Source: Spirochaetes bacterium RBG_16_67_19
GTDB lineage: Bacteria; Spirochaetota; Spirochaetia; SZUA-6; DRHE01
DNA: 11,030 bases
Direction: 5' to 3'
NCBI GenBank assembly: GCA_001829505.1
Contig: MIBK01000150.1
Span: 1 to 11,030, forward strand
Under the pieces are notes generated by a model. The model was not told where the DNA came from, made no database searches, and saw only the letters and a program-made list of their open reading frames with translations. The position numbers were made by a program, and so were the translations under genes. Each line of letters opens with the position of its first letter. Within the stretch, counting starts at the first letter, position 1. This document shows, piece after piece, positions 1 to 11,030 of this stretch.

Positions 1-329
1 CCATCGACATCGCCGACGTGGACGTGGGCGAAAACGTGGGTGCCAAGCTGCAGGCCGACCAGGCCGAGGCGGACAAGCGCCGCTTCCAGGCCGTGGCCGA
101 GCAGCGCCGGGCCGCCGCGCTGGCCCGCGAGGCGGAGATGGTAGCCCTGGTGCAGGAGAACCGCGCCCAGGTGGTGCTGGCCGAGGCGGAAATCCCCAAG
201 GCCATGGCCGAATCTTTCCGCCAGGGACACCTGGGGATCATGGACTACTACCGGATGCGCAACGTGCAGGCCGACACGCACATGCGGGAATCCATCGGCG
301 GGGAAGGCGCCCGCCCGCCCAAGGAGTAG
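1..329 (+). CDS. floA: Flotillin-like protein FloA, C-terminal part (5' end outside window)
   Basis: The reading frame is open from base 3 and begins [17 protein letters not shown], which matches the conserved region of FloA (UPF0365, formerly YqfA). About 108 C-terminal residues of a protein usually near 330 residues are present. FloA is an SPFH-family membrane scaffold that organises functional membrane microdomains. The visible part is the Ala/Glu-rich coiled-coil tail (repeated AEAD, AREAEM and AEAEIPKA blocks), followed by the typical ending with [19 protein letters not shown]. The N-terminal membrane hairpin and SPFH domain lie upstream of the window. The stop is followed three bases later by the next ATG, and the AAGGAG at 321-326 within the last codons serves that gene, so the two are probably co-transcribed. 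In many genomes floA follows an NfeD-type gene, which would be outside this window. The family assignment is from remembered motifs, not a search. Confidence 0.9.
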
Positions 330-704: not shown

Positions 705-1736
705 TCAGCCGGCGTTGCTGGACTGGGACCAGAGGTTGATGCCCCCGTCCACCGCATCCTTGTCGATGCGCGCCAGCTCTTCGGCGGAAAAGCGCAGGTT
801 GGCCAGCGCGCCCACGTTCTCGGTGATCTGCTCGGCGCTGCTGGCCCCCACCAGCGCGGTGGTCACGCGCGGGTCGCGCAGCACCCAGGCCAGCGCCATC
901 TGGGCCAGGCTCTGTCCCCGGCCGCGGGCCAACTCGTTCAGGGCCCGGATGTGACGCCGGTTTTCCTCGGTGATCAGCTTCTTGTCCAGGAAGGTGCCCG
1001 GCGTGCCCGCCCGGCTGCCCGCGGGCACTCCCGACAGGTACTTGTCCGAGAGCATGCCCTGGGCCAGCGGGGAGAAGGCGATGCAGCCGATGCCCTCTTT
1101 TTCCAGCACCTCCAGCAGGCCCTTCTCCACCCAGCGGTTGAGCATGGAGTAGGAGGGCTGGTGGATCAGGATCGGCACCTGGTGGGCCTTGAGGATCGCC
1201 GCGGCTTCCGCGGTCTTTGCCGCCGAGTAGGAGGAGATGCCGGCGTACAGCGCCTTGCCCTGCTTGACCGCGGCGGCTACCGCCCCCAGGGTTTCCTCCA
1301 GGGGCGTGTCGGGGTCCAGGCGGTGGGAGTAGAAGATGTCCACGTACTCCAGGCCCATGCGCTTCAGGCTCTGGTCCAGGCTGGCCAGCAGGTTCTTGCG
1401 CGAACCCCATTCCCCGTAGGGACCCGGCCACATCAGGTAGCCGGCCTTGGTGGAGATGATCAGCTCGTCGCGGTGGGCGGCCAGGTCCTGGCGGAGGATC
1501 TTGCCAAAGTTCTCCTCGGCCGACCCGGGGGGAGGCCCGTAGTTGTTGGCCAGGTCGAAGTGGGTGATGCCCAGGTCGAAGGCCCGGAAAATCATCCGCC
1601 GGGCCGGCTCCAGCGGGTTGACCCCGCCGAAGTTGTGCCACAGCCCCAGGGAGATCGCCGGCAGGAGCAGGCCGCTGCGCCCGCACCTGCGATACTGCAT
1701 CGAATCGTACCGGTTGGTTGCCGCCTGATAGCTCAT
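705..1736 (-). CDS. gpr: Aldo/keto reductase, YghZ/Gpr type (L-glyceraldehyde-3-phosphate reductase-like)
   Basis: A 343-residue cytoplasmic NADPH-dependent aldo/keto reductase, close in length and sequence to E. coli YghZ/Gpr (AKR14). Shared blocks include MQYRRCGRSGL near the start, LGLWHNFG, FDLGITHFDLANNYGPPPG, ELIISTKAGY and SLDQSLKRMGLEYVDIFYSHR. The catalytic tetrad is visible as D61, Y66, K97 and H138. The cofactor-binding end reads VGASSAEQITENV. In E. coli the enzyme reduces L-glyceraldehyde 3-phosphate and methylglyoxal-type aldehydes, so a detoxification role is likely here. The ATG at 1736 is chosen over an in-frame TTG at 1772 because the family N-terminus aligns there and the TTG overlaps a predicted -35 box. 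No Shine-Dalgarno sequence precedes the ATG; the predicted promoter suggests a leaderless transcript. The gene appears monocistronic and unrelated to the sugar locus. Confidence 0.93.
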   Translation of the reverse strand: MSYQAATNRYDSMQYRRCGRSGLLLPAISLGLWHNFGGVNPLEPARRMIFRAFDLGITHFDLANNYGPPPGSAEENFGKILRQDLAAHRDELIISTKAGYLMWPGPYGEWGSRKNLLASLDQSLKRMGLEYVDIFYSHRLDPDTPLEETLGAVAAAVKQGKALYAGISSYSAAKTAEAAAILKAHQVPILIHQPSYSMLNRWVEKGLLEVLEKEGIGCIAFSPLAQGMLSDKYLSGVPAGSRAGTPGTFLDKKLITEENRRHIRALNELARGRGQSLAQMALAWVLRDPRVTTALVGASSAEQITENVGALANLRFSAEELARIDKDAVDGGINLWSQSSNAG

Positions 1737-1743
1737 GGTGGGA

Positions 1744-1772
1744 AGTATACGTGCGGCTCGGGCGGCGGGCAA
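1744..1772 (-). promoter_or_regulatory. Sigma70-type promoter of the aldo/keto reductase, probably giving a leaderless mRNA
   Basis: On the minus strand TTGCCC (1772-1767) is followed by 17 bases and TATACT (1749-1744). Only seven bases separate the -10 hexamer from the ATG at 1736, so a start 7-8 bases downstream of the -10 falls on or next to the A of the ATG. This agrees with the absence of a ribosome binding site. Confidence 0.65.
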
Positions 1773-1862: not shown

Positions 1863-1893
1863 GAGAAAAAGGGCTGCCCCTCGCGGGGCAGCC
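1863..1893 (-). terminator. Intrinsic terminator of the ABC transporter/GH172 operon
   Basis: Read on the minus strand, a perfect 9-bp stem (GGCTGCCCC / GGGGCAGCC, 1893-1885 with 1880-1872) closes a four-base loop and is followed by CTTTTTCTCC. It lies just past the stop of the substrate-binding protein gene (1907). On the plus strand there is no T-run after the hairpin, so it should act in one direction only. Confidence 0.88.
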
Positions 1894-1906: not shown

Positions 1907-2908
1907 CTACTTTCCCATATAGGCGCTCAGGGGCTCGCCGTACAGTTCCCGATAAATCTGCTCCACGGAATTGGCGTCCAGCAGCGGAGCGGGCACGTAG
2001 TAAGGGACGGGGAAGGTTTTCTTGGCCGTCATGTTCTCGTGGGCGACCCTCACGCACTCCACCCCGAAGGGGTAGGAGTTGTTGACCCCTGAGCCGTCGA
2101 TGATGCCCAGCTTGACGAACTTGCATACTTCCTTGTCAGCGTCGATCCCCGTGAGCACCACGTCCGTTTTCTTTCTCGACTGCTTGGCTCGCGCCGCGCC
2201 GATCAGGGCAGCGGAGTAGGTGGCGAAAATCGCGTCGAGATCGGGATTGGCGGTGAAGAGGTTCTCGCTCACCTTCAGCGCGTCCTCCACAGATCCGGCG
2301 CGTTCAGTGGCCACGATCTTCATGCCGGGGTATTGGTCCACGGTCATGAACTTGAAGGCCTGCACCCGCAGGTCCAGGGCGTGCATGTTGAAAGTGGCGT
2401 CGATGATGGCGATTTTGGCGTCGCTCTTCCCCTTGCGCAGCAGGACCTCCGCCATCTGCCGGCCGGAGACGATGCCCATCATGGTGTTGTCGGTCCAGAT
2501 ATTGGAGATGTAGCCCTTCTCGTAAAATATGTCGGTGGGCAACCCGGAGCCCACGACGGTGATTCCTCGCTTGATCGCCTTGTCCAACACCGGCAGGATC
2601 TGCTCCGTATTCAGCGCGATCACGATCAGCGCGTCCACCTTGCGCAGGATAAGGCTTTCTACCTGCTCGAGCTGGCGGGCCGGATCGAAGTTGGCGTCCA
2701 CGACCGCTACGGCGTAGCCGTACTTCTTGGCCGTCTCTTCGACTGCCCTTTTCATGCTCAGGGACCAGTCGTCCTGCATGAAATGCATAGCCAGGCCGAT
2801 GGTCTTCGGCGCCGCCTGCGCTGCCGCGGGACTGAGCAGCAAGGCCATTGCGACAGCCAGGCAGAACAGGCCGGCAACGAACGGTTTGCTGAGATTTCTC
2901 CTTACCAT
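1907..2908 (-). CDS. Sugar ABC transporter substrate-binding protein (RbsB-like, Peripla_BP_4), secreted
   Basis: A 333-residue binding protein of the ribose/galactose type (CUT2 transporters). It captures the sugar outside the membrane and delivers it to the permease encoded in the same operon. Residues 1-32 are a Sec signal peptide: a basic start (MVRRNLSK), the hydrophobic core FCLAVAMALLL, and AQA before a likely cleavage at residue 32/33. The core Cys is not in a lipobox, so a soluble rather than lipid-anchored protein is predicted. The mature part begins KTIGLAMHFMQDDWS. It continues with family blocks such as QVESLILRKVDALIVIALN, GSVEDALKVSENLFTANPDLDAIFATY and VVLTGIDAD. The ATG at 2908 is chosen because GGGAGGAAGG lies just upstream and the signal peptide begins there; a TTG at 2962 would add an implausible 18 residues. 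It is the last gene of the operon, 50 bases after the GH172 gene, behind a hairpin. The ligand cannot be read from the sequence. Confidence 0.92.
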   Translation of the reverse strand: MVRRNLSKPFVAGLFCLAVAMALLLSPAAAQAAPKTIGLAMHFMQDDWSLSMKRAVEETAKKYGYAVAVVDANFDPARQLEQVESLILRKVDALIVIALNTEQILPVLDKAIKRGITVVGSGLPTDIFYEKGYISNIWTDNTMMGIVSGRQMAEVLLRKGKSDAKIAIIDATFNMHALDLRVQAFKFMTVDQYPGMKIVATERAGSVEDALKVSENLFTANPDLDAIFATYSAALIGAARAKQSRKKTDVVLTGIDADKEVCKFVKLGIIDGSGVNNSYPFGVECVRVAHENMTAKKTFPVPYYVPAPLLDANSVEQIYRELYGEPLSAYMGK

Positions 2909-2934
2909 TTCCTTCCTCCCTCGATAAATGAATG

Positions 2935-2956
2935 ACGGTTCGCTAACGCAAACCGT
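2935..2956 (-). promoter_or_regulatory. Intercistronic RNA hairpin between the GH172 and binding-protein genes
   Basis: On the minus strand ACGGTTTGC (2956-2948), a GTTA loop and GCGAACCGT (2943-2935) form a 9-bp stem with one G-U wobble. On the plus strand that position would be an A-C mismatch, so the fold suits minus-strand RNA. No T-run follows, so it is not an intrinsic terminator. It begins three bases after the GH172 stop and ends about 15 bases before the ribosome binding site of the binding-protein gene. Intercistronic hairpins next to binding-protein genes can stabilise mRNA segments; that role is inferred here. Confidence 0.55.
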
Positions 2957-2958
2957 TC

Positions 2959-4218
2959 TCAAAGCACATAGGTATTCAAAAACGACAGATTGCCCTGGTA
3001 GATGCCCAGAGCATCCTCCAGGCGGTTCTCCCGGATGGCCTGCGCGCCGTCGCTGATGAACTTCCAGGTCAGGCCGAAGGCGTCGGACTCCCCATAGCGC
3101 TTTTCGAGCTTCTTTTGAAAAGTCAGGATTTCGGCGATCCGGTCTTCCACCCGCAGGAGGGCTTCGGGGACCCGGGGCAGCCTGCCTTCCACGGACGGCA
3201 GGGGCTCGAAGCGCTCGTGCGGCTCCACCTGGTACCAGTAGGCCACGCTGGAGTAGTCGTTCTCGAAGTTGTTCGCGTGGCCGTGTTCAATGGACAGCTC
3301 GATGGACTCCCGGAAGCGAAGCGGATCGTTGACGTACCAGCGGTACATCCCGTTCTTTCCTGAGAAATTCTCATTTTCAATCAGTTGAAAGCCGCTGTAG
3401 GGGCCGCTGTACTCGCTGCTGGGGCAGGCCCCACCGCCGAAGATCTCTTCGGTGCCTGTCCCGTGGAGGGCGGGGGGCCACTTCCGCCCGTCGATGAAGA
3501 CCATGTCATCCCCTTCCCCATACCAGCCGCCGGCCACGTTGTCGATCTGCAGATGCATCCCGATGACCTGTCCCTGTCCCTTGGCCTTCAAGATCCGGTA
3601 GTTTTCCTTGCCGTCCAGATTCACCCCGTCCCAGAGAGGCACGTTCTTCTTTGACGGGTCGGCCGAACGGGTAAGCGGGTTCCGGCGCCACTGGGCGTGA
3701 AACCGGGCCTGCTCCTGCCTGTAGGCGGCTCCTTCCTCGTAGTCGACGTGGTACCAAAACATGAGCGGGTAGCCTCTCCGGTCCGTATACGCCGGGTACT
3801 CCAGGGTAATGCGGGCCTGCTTGGAAAAAGGCATGGGGAAATACGAGTTCAGGCCGAAAGAGCTCGGACACCAGGCGCCGCCGTTGCCCGGATTCACGGT
3901 GACCAGCAGGGAGCGCACCGGCCGGGGCAGCCCGTGAGATATGCAAAAAAAGTCCCCCAGTGGCGCCTCGACGCTGGGTGAAGTTTCGCCGTCCCAGTAC
4001 ATGCGCAGCACCATCTTGCGGTAGGCCAGGCAGGTGGGATCGATGAGGATGCAGTAGAGGTGGTTGATCCTTCCGGCGCCCTGTATGTCGGCCAGGACCG
4101 CTTCCTGGCCCGGCTCGAGCAGGACATAGTCGCGGTTCATCCCCCGCGTGTCCCAGCTGCTGACCCGCCTGCTGCGGTTTTCGTTCAGCTGGTAAAGGTG
4201 CTCCAAACCGCTGCTCAT
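2959..4218 (-). CDS. DUF2961 / glycoside hydrolase family 172 protein, cytoplasmic
   Basis: A 419-residue DUF2961 (GH172) protein. Characterised GH172 members act on alpha-D-fructofuranosides, difructose anhydride and alpha-D-arabinofuranosides, with two catalytic glutamates. Visible family features are SSWDTRGMNRDYV (21-33) near the start, GRINHLYCILIDP (49-61), RMYWDGETSPSVEAPLGDFF (72-91), WCPSSFGLNSYFPMPF (116-131), GQVIGMHLQIDN (216-227) and the signature GTGTEEIFGGG (253-263). E257 and E258 in that signature are the best candidates for one catalytic carboxylate; I cannot assign the second with confidence. There is no signal peptide or membrane segment, so it should act in the cytoplasm on an imported glycoside. 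The start at 4218 has GAGAGGAG just upstream. It lies 22 bases after the permease gene, in the middle of the transporter operon, which ties it to the transported compound. The family is clear; the substrate is inferred. Confidence 0.88.
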   Translation of the reverse strand: MSSGLEHLYQLNENRSRRVSSWDTRGMNRDYVLLEPGQEAVLADIQGAGRINHLYCILIDPTCLAYRKMVLRMYWDGETSPSVEAPLGDFFCISHGLPRPVRSLLVTVNPGNGGAWCPSSFGLNSYFPMPFSKQARITLEYPAYTDRRGYPLMFWYHVDYEEGAAYRQEQARFHAQWRRNPLTRSADPSKKNVPLWDGVNLDGKENYRILKAKGQGQVIGMHLQIDNVAGGWYGEGDDMVFIDGRKWPPALHGTGTEEIFGGGACPSSEYSGPYSGFQLIENENFSGKNGMYRWYVNDPLRFRESIELSIEHGHANNFENDYSSVAYWYQVEPHERFEPLPSVEGRLPRVPEALLRVEDRIAEILTFQKKLEKRYGESDAFGLTWKFISDGAQAIRENRLEDALGIYQGNLSFLNTYVL

Positions 4219-4240
4219 GAGCGCTCCTCTCGTACTGCCC

Positions 4241-5236
4241 TCATTTGTTTCCCGACAGGCTGACCTGTCTGAGGTGGTCCCAATACATGGCCGCGACGAT
4301 GATGCCGCCTTTGATGATCAGGCGCGTATAGAAATTGATCCCGAGCAGATTGAGGCCGTTGTCGATGATGGCAATGATCATCGCCCCGATGATCGTGCCG
4401 ATGATGCTCCCTTTGCCTCCCATGAAGCTCGTGCCGCCCAGCACGGCCGCCGAAATGGCGTCCAACTCGAGGCCTGAACCGTAGTTGGGCAGCCCGGCGG
4501 ACAGCCGCCCCGTGGCGACCAGCCCGCTGAAGCCGGCGAGCAGCCCGCTGAGCGTGTAGGCAAAGACCCGGATGCGCTTGATGTTGATCCCGGAAAGCAG
4601 GGCCGCGGTGGGATTGCCTCCGACCGCGTACACGTTCCTGCCCAGCCGGCTCGTGCGCAGCAGGGTGTGCAGAAGCGCGAATATCACCGCGGAGTACAGG
4701 ATGAGCAGCGGCACCTGCAGCAGCTGCCCGTCGGCAAAGAGGAACACGAAGCGTTCGTTCTTCACCGGCACGACGGAGCCCTGGGCGAACAGCAGGGCGG
4801 CTCCCCTGGCCATCGACATGGTGCCCAGCGTGACCAGGAAAGGCTCGATCGCGGCATACACCACGAGCAGGCCGTTCAGCAGGCCGAAGAGCAAACCGAC
4901 GAGCAGCCCGACGATCAGGGCGATGAAGATGGAGTTGTCGAACAACAGGAGCGACTGGGCGGACAGCACGCTGGCCAGGGCCAGAACGGCGGCCACCGAC
5001 AGGTCGATCCCGCGCGTCAGAATGACGATGGTCATGCCGCAGGACAGGATGAAAAAGATCGAAGTCTGGATGCCGATGTTCAGCCAGTTTTCCAGCGTCA
5101 GGAAGTACGGGCTCAGGATGCTGAAGGCCAGGATGATGATGAGCAGGGCGAGGAGCAGGCCGAAGAGCTCGTTGCGCAGGAGGCGCTGCATGACCGCCCT
5201 GCCGGCCCGCCGGGATTTCCCTTCCGATTCCGTCAT
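4241..5236 (-). CDS. Sugar ABC transporter permease (RbsC-like, BPD_transp_2, CUT2 family)
   Basis: A 331-residue integral membrane permease of the ribose/galactose/autoinducer-2 type. Many hydrophobic helices are evident from about residue 25 to the C-terminus. Family landmarks include the conserved segment around TRGIDLSVAAVLALASV (74-90), the stretch FLVTLGTMSMARGAALL (133-149) and LDAISAAVLGGTSFMGGKGS (258-277), which lies in the characteristic C-terminal motif of RbsC-type permeases. A homodimer of this subunit would form the pore, energised by the upstream ATPase. The start at 5236 is chosen because it makes an ATGA overlap with the ATPase stop (5235-5233) and gives a normal-length N-terminus. 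A longer frame to 5371 reads through ATPase sequence and is Pro/Gly/Arg-rich, unlike a permease. Translation is probably coupled, as no strong ribosome binding site is visible. Confidence 0.94.
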   Translation of the reverse strand: MTESEGKSRRAGRAVMQRLLRNELFGLLLALLIIILAFSILSPYFLTLENWLNIGIQTSIFFILSCGMTIVILTRGIDLSVAAVLALASVLSAQSLLLFDNSIFIALIVGLLVGLLFGLLNGLLVVYAAIEPFLVTLGTMSMARGAALLFAQGSVVPVKNERFVFLFADGQLLQVPLLILYSAVIFALLHTLLRTSRLGRNVYAVGGNPTAALLSGINIKRIRVFAYTLSGLLAGFSGLVATGRLSAGLPNYGSGLELDAISAAVLGGTSFMGGKGSIIGTIIGAMIIAIIDNGLNLLGINFYTRLIIKGGIIVAAMYWDHLRQVSLSGNK

Positions 5237-6786
5237 CTGCGAACTCCGGATTGATTTCGGGCGCCCCGGCTTTCGACCGTGCCGCGCCTCTCGAACTGGG
5301 TGGCCCGGGCCAGCAGGGTCTCCTGGGTCACCTCCTCGGCCTGGAACTCCCCGGTCATCCTGCCCTGGCACATTACGATGATGCGATGGCAGACCCTGAG
5401 CAGTTCGTTCAGCTCGGAGCTGATCAGGAGGATCGAAACGCCCTGGGCGGCCAGGTCGGCGAGGATGTTGTAGATCTCGAACTTGGCGCCAACGTCGATG
5501 CCCACAGTAGGCTCGTCCAGGAGCACGATCTGGGGGCTGGTGAGCAACTCCCGGGCGATCAGCGTTTTCTGCTGGTTGCCGCCGCTTAGGAAGTTGACCA
5601 GCTGGTTTATGCTGGAGACCTTGATCTTCAGGGAATCGATATAGCGGCGTCCCGCCTCCCGCTCAGAATTGCGGTCGATGAAACCGAAGCGCGTGTACTT
5701 TTCCAGCGCGGCCATCGAAATATTCTTGTCCACCTCGAGGAAGGGGAAGAGGCCTTCCTCCTTGCGGTTTTCCGAAAGATAGGCAATGCCAAGGCTGAGC
5801 GCTTCGCGTGGGGAGGAGTAGCGCACGGGCTTTCCGCGCAGCAGGATTTGCCCGCTGGTCGGTTTCCGGCGGCCGAACAGGGTCTGGAACAGTTCGGTTC
5901 GCTTCGCCCCCACCAGGCCGGCGAAGCCGAGGATCTCCCCCTCGCGCAGCACAAAGCTGATTGCCTCGAAGTGCCCCTGCAGGCAGAGCTCCCGGACTGA
6001 CAGGACGGGATTGTCTTTGGGAGCGACTTTCGCCTGCGGCCGGACGCTCTCGATGTCCCGTCCGACCATCAAGCGGATGAGCGACTCCACGCTCTCCGCG
6101 CGGGTCTCCCCCAGCTTGACCAGCTCCCCGTCCCTCAGGACCGCCACCCGATCGGTGATCTCCAGGACCTCTTTCAGCCTGTGGGAAATGAACACGACCG
6201 TGATGCCCTGTTCCTTCAAGCCGCGGATCAGCGCGAACAGCGCTCCGACCTCCTCCTCCGAGATGGAGGCGGTGGGCTCGTCCATGACGATGACCCGGCT
6301 GCGAAAGGAGATCGCCCGGCCGATCTCGACGAGCTGCTGCTCGGCGACCGAAAGGCTGGCTACCGTCCGCGCAGGCTCGAGATCGCTCTGCAGCTGCCGC
6401 AGGATTTGCCCGGTCTCCTGATGCAGTTTTTTCCACCGGATGAAGGCGCCCAGTTGCAGCGGTTGCCGCCCGGCGAAGATGTTCTCCTGGATGCTCAGCT
6501 GAGGGCAAAGGTTGCGGTCCTGCAGGATGAAGCTGAGGCCTTTTTGCTGCGCATCGACGGGATCCTCGATCGATTCCCGGTTCCCGTAGAGGAGGATCTC
6601 TCCCTTGTCCTTGCGATAGATGCCGGCCAGGATTTTCACGAGGGTGGATTTCCCCGCCCCGTTTTCCCCGATCAAGCCGAATACCTCTCCCTGCTTGATG
6701 TCCAGGCTGACATCGTGGAGCGCCCTGACACCGGGAAAGCTCTTCGAGATTCCTCTAAGCTGGACGGCCGGTTCGGGATTACTCAT
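5233..6786 (-). CDS. Sugar ABC transporter ATP-binding protein with two ABC domains (RbsA/MglA-like)
   Basis: A 517-residue tandem ATPase that powers CUT2 sugar uptake on the cytoplasmic side of the membrane. Domain 1 has Walker A GENGAGKST (40-48), a signature-like LSVAEQQLVEIGRA (145-158), Walker B VIVMDEPTAS (165-174) and the H-loop SHR (201-203). Domain 2 has a degenerate Walker A region (FAGLVGAKRTEL, 288-299), a full signature LSGGNQQ (400-406), Walker B IVLLDEPTVGID (420-431), and SSELNE where the H-loop histidine would be. This asymmetry is usual for RbsA/MglA proteins. It is the first gene of the minus-strand operon. The ATG at 6786 gives the expected N-terminus (VQLRGISKSFPGVRAL follows), but the upstream bases (GAATTCGACTTT) show no clear Shine-Dalgarno. 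The predicted promoter and operator array lie directly in front. Confidence 0.95.
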   Translation of the reverse strand: MSNPEPAVQLRGISKSFPGVRALHDVSLDIKQGEVFGLIGENGAGKSTLVKILAGIYRKDKGEILLYGNRESIEDPVDAQQKGLSFILQDRNLCPQLSIQENIFAGRQPLQLGAFIRWKKLHQETGQILRQLQSDLEPARTVASLSVAEQQLVEIGRAISFRSRVIVMDEPTASISEEEVGALFALIRGLKEQGITVVFISHRLKEVLEITDRVAVLRDGELVKLGETRAESVESLIRLMVGRDIESVRPQAKVAPKDNPVLSVRELCLQGHFEAISFVLREGEILGFAGLVGAKRTELFQTLFGRRKPTSGQILLRGKPVRYSSPREALSLGIAYLSENRKEEGLFPFLEVDKNISMAALEKYTRFGFIDRNSEREAGRRYIDSLKIKVSSINQLVNFLSGGNQQKTLIARELLTSPQIVLLDEPTVGIDVGAKFEIYNILADLAAQGVSILLISSELNELLRVCHRIIVMCQGRMTGEFQAEEVTQETLLARATQFERRGTVESRGARNQSGVRR

Positions 6787-6800
6787 AAAGTCGAATTCAT

Positions 6801-6824
6801 GTATACGTTTACGTATACGTCTAC
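6801..6824. promoter_or_regulatory. Operator array A: four tandem GTNNAC hexamers (LacI-family binding sites)
   Basis: Four consecutive hexamers of form GTNTAC on the plus strand, at 6801, 6807, 6813 and 6819. They create two overlapping near-palindromes relative to an ideal TGTAAACGTTTACA: TGTATACGTTTACG (6800-6813, 12/14) and CGTATACGTCTACA (6812-6825, 11/14), with CG centres 12 bp apart. The array touches the -10 box of the transporter promoter and covers its predicted start site, so a bound repressor would block initiation. It matches the array at 7959-7982 in layout. The adjacent LacI-family gene is the obvious candidate for the binding protein. Confidence 0.8.
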
Positions 6825-6853
6825 ATTCTCCCGCATGACTTGGTATTTGTCAA
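6825..6853 (-). promoter_or_regulatory. Sigma70 promoter of the ATPase-permease-GH172-binding protein operon
   Basis: On the minus strand a perfect TTGACA (6853-6848), a 17-bp spacer and GAGAAT (6830-6825). The -10 is weak (4/6), but the -35 and spacing are ideal. The operator array starts at the very next base. The start site should fall near 6818, inside the array, giving a leader of about 30 bases before the ATG at 6786. Confidence 0.75.
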
Positions 6854-6885
6854 GAGCTTTTTCTTGGTAGAGTTGCTATTTTGCA

Positions 6886-6899
6886 TGTAGTCGTTTACA
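6886..6899. promoter_or_regulatory. Solo operator-like site B in front of the LacI-family gene
   Basis: TGTAGTCGTTTACA matches TGTAAACGTTTACA at 12 of 14 positions and has the same CG centre as the two arrays, but it stands alone. It is 17 bases upstream of the regulator ATG, so it could mediate autorepression. It also lies about 33 bp upstream of the -35 of the divergent operon. Its centre is 74 bp from the nearer centre of array A. Confidence 0.6.
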
Positions 6900-6916
6900 C
6901 TCCGAATTGAGGGCTT

Positions 6917-7915
6917 ATGCCGACCCAGAAGGATGTCGCCAAGAGAGCGGACGTTTCTGTAGCCACCGTATCCAGGTACATCAATGAGAAGGGCTACATC
7001 AGTCCTGCGGTCAAGGAGCGCATTCGCAGCGCCATCGAGGATCTCCAGTACAAACCGAACCTTGTCGCCCGCAGCCTGAAGATGCGCAGCTCCAACATCA
7101 TCGGCCTGATCTTTCCGGACATCGAAAACCCATTCTTTATTTCGCTGATCAAGAAGGCGGAGGAAGTCGCCCAGAAGAACGGATACAACGTCATCCTGTG
7201 CAACACCAAGAACAGTCCGGGGAAAGAGGCCGAATACCTGGAAGTGCTGAAAGGCAAGCAGGTGGACGGGTACATCCTCATCCCCTCCATTACCACCGGC
7301 AGCGATATCTGGAAAGCGCTGCGCAATGAGAAGGTCGTTTTCCTGGACCGGGCGATCGACGAGGGCGGGGAGTGCATCACGGTCAAGCTGGACAATCGAA
7401 AGGGAGTGAAGATCGCCATCGACTGCCTGGCGGGCCTGGGGCACCGGCGCATCGGGACGATCACCGTGCCGATCAACATCACCACGGGATTCGAGCGGCT
7501 CGAAGGCTACAGAGCCGCACTGTCCGCCAACAACCTGGGATATGACGCGGCGCTGGTCCGCACCGCCGATTACACCGCGGAAAACGCCTACCTGCACACC
7601 CAGGACCTGCTGGCGCAGGGCGACCGGCCCACGGCCTTGCTGCCCATGAGCGGGCCCACGACGGTGGGAGCCCTTAAAGCCATCAAGGACGCGGGGCTGC
7701 AGATCCCCAGGGACATCTCCGTCATCGGATTCGACGAGTTCGAGTATGCGAAGCTGTTGAATCCTCCGCTCAGCACGATCGCCCAGCCGGCGTACGAGTT
7801 CGGCGAGAAAGGCATCGAGCTCCTCTTGCGGCTTCTCCGGGGTGAGGAGATCTCGCCGACCACGGTGATCCTCGATCCCATTTTCATGGAGCGCGATTCT
7901 TGCCGAGGGATCTAG
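6917..7915 (+). CDS. LacI-family transcriptional regulator of the sugar locus
   Basis: A 332-residue LacI/GalR-type repressor. Residues 1-48 hold the helix-turn-helix (KDVAKRADVSVATVSRYINEKGYISPAVKERI). The hinge helix is NLVARSLKMRSSN (48-60), with L54 at the position where PurR and LacI insert a leucine into the central CpG of the operator; the CG-centred sites around this gene fit that. Residues from about 61 form a periplasmic-binding-protein-like sensor domain (IIGLIFPDIENPFF, GYNVILCNTKN, VDGYILIPS, GLGHRRIGTI, ISVIGFDEFEYAKLLNPPLSTIAQP), which binds the sugar effector. The start has TGAGGG just upstream. The gene sits between the two operons with GTNNAC arrays, and a single similar site lies before its own ATG, so it probably represses both operons and itself until a pathway sugar binds. 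The effector is unknown. Confidence 0.95.
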   Translation: MPTQKDVAKRADVSVATVSRYINEKGYISPAVKERIRSAIEDLQYKPNLVARSLKMRSSNIIGLIFPDIENPFFISLIKKAEEVAQKNGYNVILCNTKNSPGKEAEYLEVLKGKQVDGYILIPSITTGSDIWKALRNEKVVFLDRAIDEGGECITVKLDNRKGVKIAIDCLAGLGHRRIGTITVPINITTGFERLEGYRAALSANNLGYDAALVRTADYTAENAYLHTQDLLAQGDRPTALLPMSGPTTVGALKAIKDAGLQIPRDISVIGFDEFEYAKLLNPPLSTIAQPAYEFGEKGIELLLRLLRGEEISPTTVILDPIFMERDSCRGI

Positions 7916-7929
7916 AGAGCGAGTTTTTC

Positions 7930-7958
7930 TTGACAGGCGTCCCTTTATATGCCAAAAT
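7930..7958 (+). promoter_or_regulatory. Sigma70 promoter of the kinase-isomerase operon
   Basis: A perfect TTGACA (7930-7935), a 17-bp spacer and CAAAAT (7953-7958, 4/6 to TATAAT). The start site should fall near 7965, inside the operator array that begins at 7959. The layout duplicates that of the divergent transporter promoter. An ATG at 7949, in frame with the kinase, lies upstream of this start site and so cannot be the translation start from this promoter. Confidence 0.78.
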
Positions 7959-7982
7959 GTAAACGTATACATAAACGTTTAC
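7959..7982. promoter_or_regulatory. Operator array C: four tandem hexamers in the kinase promoter
   Basis: Hexamers begin at 7959, 7965, 7971 and 7977; three are GTNNAC and the third is ATAAAC. Two overlapping near-palindromes result: TGTAAACGTATACA (7958-7971, 13/14 to TGTAAACGTTTACA) and CATAAACGTTTACA (7970-7983, 12/14), again with CG centres 12 bp apart. The array abuts the -10 and covers the expected start site, as in the transporter promoter, which predicts the same repressor and coordinated induction. Confidence 0.82.
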
Positions 7983-7996
7983 ACAGCGAGGAATCC

Positions 7997-8941
7997 ATGG
8001 CAAAGGTTGTGAGCTTGGGCATTCACATTGCGGACGTCCTGGGCAGGCCTGTCACAAACATACCGGAAGGCCAGAACCTGGCCTTGTTGGAGGAGATTCG
8101 CCTTACCGTGGCCGGAACAGCGGCAGGAACCAGCGTAGATTTGGCAAAGCTGGGCTTGGATGTATATGCAATAGGAGCGATCGGGCAGGATGAACTGGGG
8201 GATTTCGTTGTCTATACGATGAAACGCTACGGCATCCACACTGATGGCCTGGTGAGGAAGAAAGGCGTGCAGACTTCCGCTACCATGCTCCCCATACGAC
8301 CGAACGGCGAGCGGCCGGCGCTGCACGTGCCCGGGGCCAACGCCCACTTTAGCCTGGAGGACGTGAACTTCGACCTGATCGCTGCTGCGGACTACCTGCA
8401 CATTGGAGGCACACCCTTGATGCCGCGTTTCGACGGGGAGCCCATGCGCAAGGTGTTCGAGTTTGCCCGCCAGCACAAAGTGGTCACCACTTATGACTTG
8501 CTGGCAATCAACAAGCCTAACTTATTGGAGCAGGTCGAAATGGTGCTGCCTTTTGTCGATTATTTCATGCCTGGCTTCGAAGAGGCCGTCATGATGTGCG
8601 GGCTGCGGGATCGCCATGAGGCAATCCGCTTTTTCCTCGAGAGGGGAGCGGGGCACACCGTCTTCAAAATGGGCAACAAAGGCAGCAGCGCAGCATGGTT
8701 GGAGGACGGAATGCTCAAAGAGATCATCGTCCCGGCCATGAAGGTGCCGGTTGTAGATTCCACCGGCTGCGGTGACGCTTACTGCGCGGGGTTCATCAGC
8801 GGGCTGTCGCTGGGCTACGATCTGCAAAAAGCCTGCCGGTTGGGGACCGCGGCCGGAGGACTGGTCATCCAGGGGCTGGGTTCCGACGCCGGAATCGTCG
8901 ACTTAAAAAGCACGCTTCGTTTCATGGAGGAGCAAGCATGA
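7997..8941 (+). CDS. PfkB-family carbohydrate kinase
   Basis: A 314-residue ribokinase/PfkB-type sugar kinase that would transfer phosphate from ATP to a primary hydroxyl of its sugar. Visible features are an N-terminal sheet (AKVVSLGIHIADVLGRPV), the glycine-rich substrate-side segment VAGTAAGTSVDLAKLGLDVYAIGAIGQDELGD (38-69), the VFKMGNKGSSAAW region (222-234) and the ATP/anion-hole motif VVDSTGCGDAYCAGF (252-266), with D260 as the catalytic base. The motif departs from the common DTTGAGD by Ser for the first Thr and Cys for Ala. The start at 7997 is supported by GCGAGGAA upstream and by the predicted transcript start near 7965. An upstream in-frame ATG at 7949 would encode the operator sequence. 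The stop overlaps the next ATG (ATGA), so the kinase and isomerase are translationally coupled. The likely substrate is the ketose made by that isomerase. A ribokinase, ketopentokinase or fructokinase role cannot be distinguished by eye. Confidence 0.92.
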   Translation: MAKVVSLGIHIADVLGRPVTNIPEGQNLALLEEIRLTVAGTAAGTSVDLAKLGLDVYAIGAIGQDELGDFVVYTMKRYGIHTDGLVRKKGVQTSATMLPIRPNGERPALHVPGANAHFSLEDVNFDLIAAADYLHIGGTPLMPRFDGEPMRKVFEFARQHKVVTTYDLLAINKPNLLEQVEMVLPFVDYFMPGFEEAVMMCGLRDRHEAIRFFLERGAGHTVFKMGNKGSSAAWLEDGMLKEIIVPAMKVPVVDSTGCGDAYCAGFISGLSLGYDLQKACRLGTAAGGLVIQGLGSDAGIVDLKSTLRFMEEQA

Positions 8942-10515
8942 AGCAGGCGATCCTTCTCTCCAATGGCGATTTCCGGGAGGCGGTCGGGCGGAACTGCTGG
9001 CCTAAGCAGGAAGAAACCCTCCGGCAGGTCGAAAGCGTGCTGCAAAAGTTGCGGTGTTCCCCGGTTCGAGGCCACCCCTACAATCGCGACAGGGGACACG
9101 GTTTCATAACCACCCAGGCGGAGGCCTGCGAGGTTTTCGCGCACCTGTCCCCGGAGGCTCCCCTCATCCTCGTGCTTTCCTCCTGGACCTGGGCTCATCA
9201 CGTGGCTTCTTGTCTGAAGCTGCACCGGGGCCCGATCCTCGTCCTGGGCAACTTCGACGGCACCTGGCCGGGTCTGGTATCGTTGCTGAACCTTTCCGCC
9301 AGCCTGGAGCGGCTCGGAGTGCGTCACTCGAGAGCCTGGACGGAGGCCTTCGACCGAGATCCCGCTTTCCTCGGCAACCTTCGACAATGGCTGGAGACCG
9401 GGACAATCAAGTACTCTCAGAATCACCTTTCCGCCCTGGATCTCCGTCAGCTCTCTACGCAAGCTAGAAACTTTGGCGCTGAGTTGGCTGGGGATATCCT
9501 GCGCACCAAGAGGATCCTGGGGCAGATGGATCCAGGCTGCATGGGCATGCTGAATGCCGTAATGAGCCCGGACAAACTTGCCGGGATCGGCATGCCGTTG
9601 GAGCTCTTGAACCAGTCCGATCTGCTCGCTGAGATGGCTCTGGTCAGGGAGGAAGAAGCTCATTTGGCATTGGGCTGGCTCAAAGAGCGCGGGGTGCGCT
9701 TTGATTGGGGAGCCGATGAGAGCGGGCTGACCGAGCGGCAGGTGCTGGAGCAGATGAAGATGTATACCGCTGCCGGCAGGATCTATAGCCGTTACGGGTT
9801 GAAAGCCATCGGCATTCCCTACCAGTACGGACTGGTACGCTGCACGATGGCTTCAGATCTGCCGGAGGGAATGCTCAATAATAGCGACCGGCCGGAGATT
9901 TTCGATCCTGAAAAGAGCGTGGCAATCAATCCCGGATCGCCGATTGTGCATTTCAACGAGGGGGACGTCGGCTCTGCAGTGCCCCAGGTGCTGATGCACG
10001 ATATCCTCCGCCGCAAAGGGATGGCCCCCGAGACGACCCTTCATGATGTGCGTTGGGGAGATGATTGGGACGGAAAGTTTATCTGGAGCCTGGAAATCTC
10101 CGGCGGTGCCCCAGCCGCGCACTTTGGCGGCTGGTCCCGGGTATCCGTGTATCGGCAAACCCCGATGTATTTCCCCAAGGGCGGTGGAACCTGTAGCGGT
10201 GTGTCCAAGCCGGGAGCCATCAGCTGGGCTCGGTTCTACGAGAGTTTCGGGAACATCGGCATTGATGTCGGGCTGGGCGAGGTGATCGAGCTTCCTGAAT
10301 CAGAATTGGCTCGTCGGCGGGAGGCAACTTCCAAGGAATGGCCTATTGCCAATGTGTATATTCCAGGCTACGGGCGCGATGAGCTGATGAGCAGCCACAG
10401 ATCGAACCACATTACTATTTGTTACGGAGACATCCTGGAAGAGCTCAGCTCAACCGCCCTGCAACTCGGCATTCCCACCACTGTCGCCGGAGAGGCTAGA
10501 CAGCGGCTAGCCTAG
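8938..10515 (+). CDS. L-fucose/L-arabinose isomerase-like protein (probable aldose-ketose isomerase)
   Basis: A 525-residue protein that resembles the fucose/arabinose isomerase fold family, which interconverts aldoses and ketoses with a Mn ion; FucI itself also isomerises D-arabinose to D-ribulose. Classical FucI is about 590 residues, so this is a shorter variant. Features seen: GPILVLGNFDGTWPGLVSLLNLSASLERLG (98-127) in the N-terminal domain, DPGCMGMLNAVMSP (198-211) and, in the C-terminal half, PIVHFNEGDVGSAVPQVLMHDIL (335-357). E341, D370 (in LHDVRWG) and H487 or H491 (SSHRSNH) are in the order expected of the Glu/Asp/His metal ligands, but this assignment is by pattern only. It overlaps the kinase gene by ATGA and ends the operon. 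The stop is 30 bases from the convergent FHA gene and no terminator hairpin is visible. The family is fairly sure; the substrate is inferred from neighbours. Confidence 0.75.
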   Translation: MKQAILLSNGDFREAVGRNCWPKQEETLRQVESVLQKLRCSPVRGHPYNRDRGHGFITTQAEACEVFAHLSPEAPLILVLSSWTWAHHVASCLKLHRGPILVLGNFDGTWPGLVSLLNLSASLERLGVRHSRAWTEAFDRDPAFLGNLRQWLETGTIKYSQNHLSALDLRQLSTQARNFGAELAGDILRTKRILGQMDPGCMGMLNAVMSPDKLAGIGMPLELLNQSDLLAEMALVREEEAHLALGWLKERGVRFDWGADESGLTERQVLEQMKMYTAAGRIYSRYGLKAIGIPYQYGLVRCTMASDLPEGMLNNSDRPEIFDPEKSVAINPGSPIVHFNEGDVGSAVPQVLMHDILRRKGMAPETTLHDVRWGDDWDGKFIWSLEISGGAPAAHFGGWSRVSVYRQTPMYFPKGGGTCSGVSKPGAISWARFYESFGNIGIDVGLGEVIELPESELARRREATSKEWPIANVYIPGYGRDELMSSHRSNHITICYGDILEELSSTALQLGIPTTVAGEARQRLA

Positions 10516-10545: not shown

Positions 10546-10965
10546 TCACTCGTTCGGGATGGGACCGGCGGTGCCCTCGTCCCCGGACTCTTCTTCCGGT
10601 TTGTCGGCCGCTTCCTCCGCCACTCCGTGCTCGCGCCGCCAGGCAAGGTAGTCGGTCCACACGAAGCGCAGCCTCGTTTCGCCGAGATTGATCAGGCCGC
10701 CGGTCATCAGGTTCTTCTGGATGTACTCCTTGCCTTTGACCACGGTCTTGTTCAGGGAGCCCAGGTCCATGACCGTGAAGTGGTCGCCCCGGAAGACGAT
10801 CTGGCAGTGCTTGCGCGAAACGTACTCGTCCTCCAGGCGCAGGTCGCAGTTCGGATCCCTGCCGATGGTCACGGTTTTCTTGGTGATGGGGAAGTGGAAG
10901 GTCTCGCCGTTCTTCTTGGTCACTTCCAGGTACACGTCCGGGGGCAGCTCGAGGTCCGGTTCCAT
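10546..10965 (-). CDS. Small FHA-domain protein
   Basis: A 139-residue protein that is essentially one forkhead-associated domain, a phosphothreonine-binding module. From about residue 10 it reads VYLEVTKKNGETFHFPI and then TIGRDPNCDLRLEDEYVSRKH (33-53). The usual phosphopeptide-contacting residues are present: R36, S50, H53 and N72 (in GSLNKT). The GGLINLGETRLRFVW block completes the fold. The C-terminus is an acidic, probably disordered tail (EEAADKPEEESGDEG). No kinase, phosphatase or secretion gene is adjacent in the window, so its partner is unknown. The ATG at 10965 is preferred to one at 11022 because the domain starts soon after it and a promoter-like element ends seven bases upstream. 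The longer form would add 19 residues with no ribosome binding site visible. It converges on the isomerase gene. Confidence 0.88.
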   Translation of the reverse strand: MEPDLELPPDVYLEVTKKNGETFHFPITKKTVTIGRDPNCDLRLEDEYVSRKHCQIVFRGDHFTVMDLGSLNKTVVKGKEYIQKNLMTGGLINLGETRLRFVWTDYLAWRREHGVAEEAADKPEEESGDEGTAGPIPNE

Positions 10966-10972
10966 GAGGATA

Positions 10973-11002
10973 AGTGTAGTCCATCCGCTTCGCGCTTGCC
11001 AG
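10973..11002 (-). promoter_or_regulatory. Probable promoter of the FHA gene, leaderless geometry
   Basis: On the minus strand CTGGCA (11002-10997), an 18-bp spacer and TACACT (10978-10973), then exactly seven bases to the ATG at 10965. No Shine-Dalgarno is present. The distance from -10 to ATG is the same as at the aldo/keto reductase gene, which supports both calls. Confidence 0.5.
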
Positions 11003-11030
11003 CGGCGGAGGGGATATAGCATGATGTGGC

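What the first reader, a model, noticed from the sequence alone, without database searches (positions are those of the whole stretch)
1907..10515. Complete, apparently undescribed furanoside/pentose utilisation locus combining GH172, CUT2 transporter, FucI-like isomerase and PfkB kinase
Seen: two operons with matching promoters and operators encode uptake, a DUF2961/GH172 hydrolase, an isomerase of the fucose/arabinose type, a PfkB kinase and a LacI regulator. Known: GH172 enzymes act on alpha-D-fructofuranosides and alpha-D-arabinofuranosides, and FucI-type isomerases convert D-arabinose to D-ribulose. Inferred: the locus takes in a D-arabinose-containing compound, releases D-arabinose, makes D-ribulose and phosphorylates it to a pentose phosphate. 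The absence of an aldolase in either closed operon argues against a 6-deoxyhexose route such as L-fucose. The pairing of a PfkB kinase with a FucI-like enzyme, in place of the FGGY kinase of the fuc operon, is unusual.
Basis: partly seen in the sequence, partly recalled or inferred. Interest (0 to 1): 0.75.

Follow-up and report, generated by a model that had tools for sequence, protein, structure and literature searches.

The report
Likely D-arabinose furanoside utilisation locus
An uncultured, probably spirochaete, bacterium carries a self-regulated set of genes that most likely imports a small furanose-type sugar compound, cuts it inside the cell and turns the released sugar, probably D-arabinose, into fuel; the general scheme is known, but the cutting enzyme belongs to an untested branch of its family and the kinase is of an unexpected type.

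Summary
Seven genes (1907-10515) form two operons: CUT2 importer plus GH172 (DUF2961) hydrolase; LacI, PfkB kinase and FucI-fold isomerase. Four operator matches (none in 200 shuffles) tie them together; the operators and the LacI-PfkB pair recur in a MAG of another phylum. D-arabinose is favoured, not proven. For: the isomerase has the FucI fold and metal triad; 26 of 80 relatives lie within 6 kb of an FGGY kinase resembling D-ribulokinases; known GH172 enzymes cut alpha-D-arabinofuranosides. Against: this GH172 lies in a clade without solved members, with two active-site changes (Tyr to Trp, Asp to Glu); GH172 is near the isomerase in 0 of 80 relatives; the orthologous kinase in that other MAG sits with another isomerase and near a D-ribulokinase-type gene. 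The same logic (cytoplasmic GH172, isomerase, kinase, ABC importer) is published for D-arabinan degraders, so this is a new variant of a known kind. The Trp/Glu GH172 clade is the most novel part. Nothing was assayed.

The parts
5233..6786 (-). CUT2 sugar ABC transporter ATPase (duplicated ATP-binding domain)
   Evidence: PF00005, two stretches; best NCBIfam RbsA 532.4 bits, below its cut-off 745
4241..5236 (-). CUT2 permease, start overlaps the ATPase by 4 bp
   Evidence: PF02653 1.9e-43; nearest NCBIfam ribose, allose and arabinose permeases, all below cut-off (scanned from 5200)
2959..4218 (-). GH172 (DUF2961) hydrolase, no signal peptide seen by eye; Glu235, Glu257, Trp232 kept; Trp155 and Glu258 stand for Tyr187 and Asp292 of alphaFFase1
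   Evidence: PF11175 247.5 bits (cut-off 27); PDB hits 7v1v 2.3e-65, 4kq7, 8ah3, 8ic8; residue mapping and tree
1907..2908 (-). periplasmic sugar-binding protein with a signal-peptide-like N-terminus
   Evidence: PF13407 5.3e-45; best PDB hit 2ioy, named Periplasmic sugar-binding protein, 6.5e-23 (scanned from 2929)
1872..1893 (-). hairpin, probable terminator of the transporter operon
   Evidence: 9-pair stem, 8 GC, T-rich tail; sites of this class did not exceed shuffles
6825..6853 (-). promoter-like site of the transporter/GH172 operon
   Evidence: TTGACA-17-GAGAAT, 10 of 12
6800..6825 (.). double LacI-type operator touching the leftward -10 and covering the start region
   Evidence: 12/14 and 11/14 to TGTAAACGTTTACA, 12 bp apart
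6886..6899 (.). single operator just upstream of lacI (autoregulation likely)
   Evidence: 12/14
6917..7915 (+). LacI-family regulator
   Evidence: PF00356 and PF13377; a 54.5% identical LacI with the same operators in G458
7930..7958 (+). promoter-like site of the kinase-isomerase operon
   Evidence: TTGACA-17-CAAAAT, 10 of 12, TG before the second hexamer
7958..7983 (.). double operator touching the rightward -10
   Evidence: 13/14 and 12/14, 12 bp apart
7997..8941 (+). PfkB-family sugar kinase, substrate unassigned (D-ribulose proposed)
   Evidence: PF00294 2.6e-47; all NCBIfam models below cut-off, best IolC-N 137.9 of 300
8938..10515 (+). FucI-fold aldose isomerase, metal triad Glu341, Asp370, His491

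Best explanation
A LacI-type repressor keeps two operons shut until a sugar inducer appears. The CUT2 importer takes up a small furanoside intact; the cytoplasmic GH172 enzyme, a retaining hydrolase with two catalytic glutamates, releases the sugar; the metal-dependent FucI-fold isomerase turns the aldose, most likely D-arabinose, into the ketose D-ribulose; the PfkB kinase phosphorylates it, most likely to D-ribulose 5-phosphate, which enters the pentose phosphate pathway. Shown by sequence: gene identities, operators, operon layout, isomerase fold and triad, GH172 catalytic glutamates; location only by the look of the N-termini. Inferred: every substrate and product, the inducer, the order of steps and the position phosphorylated.
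Against: The GH172 lies in a clade without solved members and differs at two active-site positions; changing the Asp left about 1% activity in alphaFFase1 (PMC8605356), and an important role of the same residue is stated for DgGH172c (PMC10115798). GH172 is near the isomerase in 0 of 80 relatives. The kinase at E up to 1e-60 is in only 1 of 49 isomerase-bearing genomes searched; in that one, G458, it is followed by a RhaI-like TIM-barrel gene and preceded, beyond lacI, by a TIGR01315 kinase gene, while the FucI-like gene is 13 kb away. The 73% paralogue in this genome sits with a RhaB-like kinase and a TIM-barrel gene. So PfkB may not be the D-ribulose kinase. In the 56 closer relatives (L007-L062) FGGY was found in only 6 and LacI in none. 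The KDO route is a guess from gene order.
Confidence: 0.5

Rival explanations
1. Same import-hydrolyse-isomerise-phosphorylate scheme, but the furanose is not D-arabinose: for example an L-galacto/L-fuco, D-altro or D-ribo furanoside, with the altered GH172 pocket tuned to it.
For: Trp155/Glu258 double change in all 32 rows of the GH172 clade; a FucI also acts on L-fucose/L-fuculose, with lower rates on other sugars (PMC6894278); the nearest NCBIfam models of regulator, binding protein, permease and ATPase are ribose-type, all below cut-off.
Against: No aldolase in the operons, which a 6-deoxyhexose or hexose 1-phosphate route would need; TIGR01315-type kinases and RpiB near relatives point to a pentulose.
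Confidence: 0.22
2. The modules serve different sugars: GH172 and CUT2 handle one glycoside, and the kinase and isomerase another sugar (or the two halves of one heteroside); PfkB phosphorylates the product of another isomerase as may happen in G458.
For: LacI-PfkB pair followed by a RhaI-like TIM-barrel gene and near a TIGR01315 kinase in G458; paralogous PfkB with a TIM-barrel gene and a RhaB-like kinase in this genome; no GH172 near other isomerases.
Against: Kinase and isomerase genes overlap by 4 bp here behind one promoter and operator pair, and seem to recur together on other contigs.
Confidence: 0.17
3. An alpha-D-fructofuranoside (such as difructose anhydride) locus, with PfkB as fructokinase.
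For: Best PDB sequence hit of the GH172 is alphaFFase1, 7v1v, 2.3e-65, though 4kq7 and 8ah3 are close behind.
Against: In the tree alphaFFase1 lies in another clade; its +1 subsite Lys147 aligns with Gly111 here; [quoted passage not shown]
Confidence: 0.08

Closest known systems
D-arabinan degradation locus of Microbacterium arabinogalactanolyticum (PMC10509167; passages read)
   Same: GH172 without signal sequence, ABC importer, putative isomerase and kinase feeding D-ribulose 5-phosphate
   Different: There: secreted GH183 endo-D-arabinanases, a GH116 exo-enzyme and an SBP_bac_8 importer. Here: no gene of those families was recognised in the window, a CUT2 importer, a PfkB kinase and a different GH172 clade
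PUL42 of Dysgonomonas gadei (PMC10115798; passages read)
   Same: GH172 enzymes with a predicted fucose isomerase
   Different: Bacteroidota PUL with GH183; its solved GH172 (DgGH172c) has Tyr and Asp where this one has Trp and Glu
alphaFFase1 of Bifidobacterium dentium, GH172 (PMC8605356; passages read)
   Same: Family, both catalytic Glu and Trp267
   Different: Tyr187 to Trp, Asp292 to Glu, Lys147 to Gly; separate clade
L-fucose/D-arabinose isomerase FucI
   Same: Fold and metal triad
   Different: 16-20% identity in the structural alignments, 525 against about 590 residues, no NCBIfam match
Rbl D-ribulose locus of Citrobacter rodentium (PMC12307932; passages read)
   Same: ABC importer with a simple-sugar binding protein and a pentulose kinase in one operon
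   Different: FGGY kinase and KpsF-like isomerase; no hydrolase or FucI-type isomerase is mentioned in the passages

Membership tests
GH172 (DUF2961) | Pfam PF11175 above its cut-off | tested here: met
   247.5 bits, cut-off 27
GH172 (DUF2961) | catalytic pair Glu270/Glu291 of alphaFFase1 | tested here: met
   Glu235, Glu257
GH172 members of known structure | -1 subsite Asp292 and Tyr187 | tested here: not met
   Glu258 and Trp155; all 4 PDB sequences have Asp and Tyr. This does not remove it from GH172, but blocks transfer of substrate
GH172 (DUF2961) | alpha-D-arabinofuranosidase or alpha-D-fructofuranosidase activity | not testable with these tools
   needs assay
FucI/AraA isomerase superfamily | fold | tested here: met
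FucI/AraA isomerase superfamily | metal-binding Glu-Asp-His | tested here: met
   Glu341, Asp370, His491 in a multiple alignment with E. coli FucI; invariant in the 25-row alignment
L-fucose isomerase proper (FucI) | curated NCBIfam model | tested here: not met
   0 NCBIfam families; the 5 PDB sequence hits up to E 10 are not isomerases
PfkB kinases | PF00294 above cut-off | tested here: met
   162.1 bits, cut-off 25.8
any named PfkB equivalog (ribokinase, IolC, tagatose kinase and others) | NCBIfam cut-off | tested here: not met
   22 families listed, all below cut-off, best 137.9 of 300
CUT2 transporters | Peripla_BP_4 binding protein, duplicated ATPase, BPD_transp_2 permease | tested here: met
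D-arabinan PUL | endo-D-arabinanase GH183 in the locus | tested here: not met
   the genes of the locus are otherwise assigned; the rest of the genome was not searched for GH183
D-ribulokinase TIGR01315 elsewhere in the genome | match over cut-off in G000 | tested here: not met
   best 151.1 of 408.7; genome about 84% complete; no control genome passed the cut-off either

The most novel reading that the evidence does not exclude
The GH172 branch marked by Trp155 and Glu258 is a furanosidase subfamily with a sugar specificity not yet seen in GH172, and in this locus it feeds a D-ribulose pathway in which a PfkB kinase, not an FGGY kinase, is the D-ribulokinase; the isomerase clade is a D-arabinose isomerase hub that elsewhere is fed by a KDO-cleaving lyase.
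Probability: 0.22. Interest if true: 0.6.

Novelty: new variant of a known kind. Interest (0 to 1): 0.42.

Why it matters
If right, D-arabinose furanosides are food for uncultured bacteria outside the actinobacteria and Bacteroidota in which such loci were described, and two enzyme groups gain a testable role: the Trp/Glu GH172 branch (all 120 proteins listed in the homology search, the window's own included, carry Glu at this position) and a FucI-like isomerase family (2641 proteins at E up to 0.001 among the 7999 candidates scored). The isomerase neighbourhoods also offer a candidate operon for KDO breakdown; one library search for KDO aldolase or KDO catabolism listed 3 papers, none about such a locus by title and abstract.
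Full report
What is there. The window is the first 11030 of 12586 bases of contig C150 of a 3.80-Mb metagenome-assembled genome, 83.7% complete. Its phylum is probably Spirochaetota: the two other phylum members that carry this isomerase have sequences identical to, or containing, L007 and L060, whose records are named Spirochaetes bacterium. The leftward operon reads ATPase, permease, GH172, binding protein and is followed by a strong hairpin. The rightward genes are lacI, then a second promoter-like site, then the PfkB kinase and the isomerase, which overlap by 4 bp.

Regulation. The palindrome TGTAAACGTTTACA occurs in tandem pairs 12 bp apart at both operon promoters, and once before lacI. 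Four matches with at most two mismatches were found and none in 200 shuffles; the fifth half of the pattern, at 6812, has 11 of 14. An independent check: in G458, a MAG labelled Deltaproteobacteria, a LacI 54.5% identical and a PfkB 75.6% identical lie side by side, with two such tandem pairs upstream of lacI (13/14 and 11/14; 12/14 and 11/14) and none between lacI and pfkB. This makes LacI the likely regulator of both operons.

What relatives of the isomerase sit beside. A scan of GTDB species genomes gave 176 relatives, of which the best 80 were kept. Within 6 kb, as far as contigs reach, 26 of 80 have an FGGY kinase (two of them under 120 bits), 19 of 80 a DHDPS-family gene (16 just downstream on the same strand, 3 weak or far), 3 of 80 a PfkB (one adjacent on the same strand, L014, whose kinase was the query), 14 of 80 a LacI-type gene, 0 of 80 a GH172. 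FGGY was found in 20 of the 24 loci of 42-45% identity (Proteobacteria and one Streptomyces) but in 6 of the 56 closer loci, many of which are Hydrogenedentota; there the neighbours scanned in two loci were amino-acid biosynthesis genes (leuB-like, lysA-like). The one FGGY kinase of these loci tested is a TIGR01315 member above cut-off, the model used to collect FGGY kinases in PMC12307932, which describes D-ribulokinases among them, DarK of D-arabinose metabolism included (passages). In G815 the isomerase follows an RpiB gene above cut-off for PRK05571. These point to D-ribulose. TRAP parts in L021 and L014 and a peptide-type binding protein in L072, a DHDPS/NanA-like gene, the isomerase and a pentulose kinase could form a KDO pathway, since KDO aldolase would give D-arabinose; that reaction is recalled, not from a call, and the one library search for it listed 3 papers, none about such a locus by title and abstract.

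GH172. All 120 proteins listed (the window's own included) read GTG[TS]EE where the four solved members read GTGTED. In a 54-row tree the window protein lies in a 32-row clade (100/98) without any solved member; alphaFFase1, the DgGH172c/BACUNI pair and ExoMA1 fall in three other places. All 32 rows carry Trp for Tyr187 and Glu for Asp292; of the other 22 rows 15 have Tyr/Asp, 5 Phe/Asp, 1 Phe/Glu and 1 a gap with Asp. Both catalytic glutamates stay. Alanine or asparagine at Asp292 left 1.4% activity or less on both substrates (PMC8605356), and the text on DgGH172c stresses Asp255 next to the catalytic Glu254 (PMC10115798; the mutant itself is printed there as D225A). So the change is unlikely to be neutral, but Glu keeps the carboxylate and the clade is conserved, so an active enzyme with another preference is more likely than a dead one. 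Other characterised GH172 proteins (DgGH172a, DgGH172b, NocGH172, MycGH172) were not in my comparison.

Kinase. All named PfkB models are far below cut-off. Close relatives are numerous: the 119 others listed have 68-82% identity. Six contig lengths are shared between the isomerase and kinase lists, one being the window's; above 5 kb five are shared against 0.11 expected. On contigs of 5531 and 6076 bases the two genes must be close; for 2772 bases they would be adjacent, but at that size a chance match is possible. This is inference from lengths; those contigs could not be read. Against a simple reading, the kinase was found at 1e-60 in only 1 of 49 isomerase-bearing genomes (49 of the 81 at hand). 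In that one, G458, it is followed by a TIM-barrel gene (RhaI-like, 100 of 531 bits) and preceded, beyond lacI and on the same strand, by a TIGR01315 kinase of 596.9 bits; the operators lie between that kinase and lacI, none was found before it, and the FucI-like gene lies 13 kb away. A 73% paralogue in the window's own genome lies with a CUT2-like ATPase end, a RhaB-like kinase (342.9 of 528 bits) and a TIM-barrel gene, without the operators. No TIGR01315 kinase above cut-off was found in the own genome (best 151.1 of 408.7), which leaves PfkB as the local candidate; the genome is incomplete.

Literature. The closest published loci are D-arabinan systems with a GH172, an importer, a putative isomerase and a kinase (PMC10509167, passages) and with a predicted fucose isomerase (PMC10115798, passages). 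So the pathway idea is known; the CUT2 importer, the PfkB kinase, the divergent isomerase and the GH172 clade are the differences. A search for GH172 or DUF2961 returned 16 papers; I read passages of three. No paper was read whole.

Verdict. A real, well-regulated sugar locus; a new variant of a known kind. D-arabinose is the best single reading at about even odds.

Noticed in passing
L011, L014, L017, L018, L021, L026, L068, L070, L072, L075, L076, L079, L080, L081, L085, L086: Isomerase relatives with a DHDPS/NanA-family gene just downstream, mostly with a pentulose kinase; TRAP parts confirmed in L021 and L014, a peptide-type binding protein in L072: a candidate KDO (3-deoxy-octulosonate) catabolic operon.
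   Followed up: partly
L146 1-9151 (G000 contig 49): Second sugar locus in the same genome with a 73% identical PfkB, a RhaB-like kinase, a DUF6786 protein, a TIM-barrel gene, a Zn dehydrogenase, a URO-D gene and ABC transporter parts.
   Followed up: partly
L152 11197-11948, just beyond the window: Readable pieces of what may be a DHDPS-like gene on the + strand past the FHA gene; first piece 20 bits of 22.1 in Pfam, second piece no match; part of the stretch reads N.
   Followed up: partly
window 705-1772: Aldo/keto reductase of the L-glyceraldehyde 3-phosphate reductase subfamily (530 bits, cut-off 448), with its own promoter-like site.
   Followed up: no
window 3-329 and 10546-11022: End of a flotillin-like FloA gene and an FHA-domain gene flank the locus; third-position GC is about 0.92 in FloA and the reductase but 0.71-0.90 in the locus.
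   Followed up: no
L157 975-7879 (G815): Zn dehydrogenase, RpiB and isomerase in a row, beside an ABC permease (PF00528) and a solute-binding protein (PF13416) on the other strand.
   Followed up: partly
L003, L004, L005: A more distant FucI-like family (about 480 aa, same metal triad) in genomes of the window's class; in L003, and by similarity L004, between a sugar-binding protein and a TIM-barrel gene.
   Followed up: no
window 2935-2956: Weak hairpin between the GH172 and binding-protein genes that could set different expression levels.
   Followed up: no
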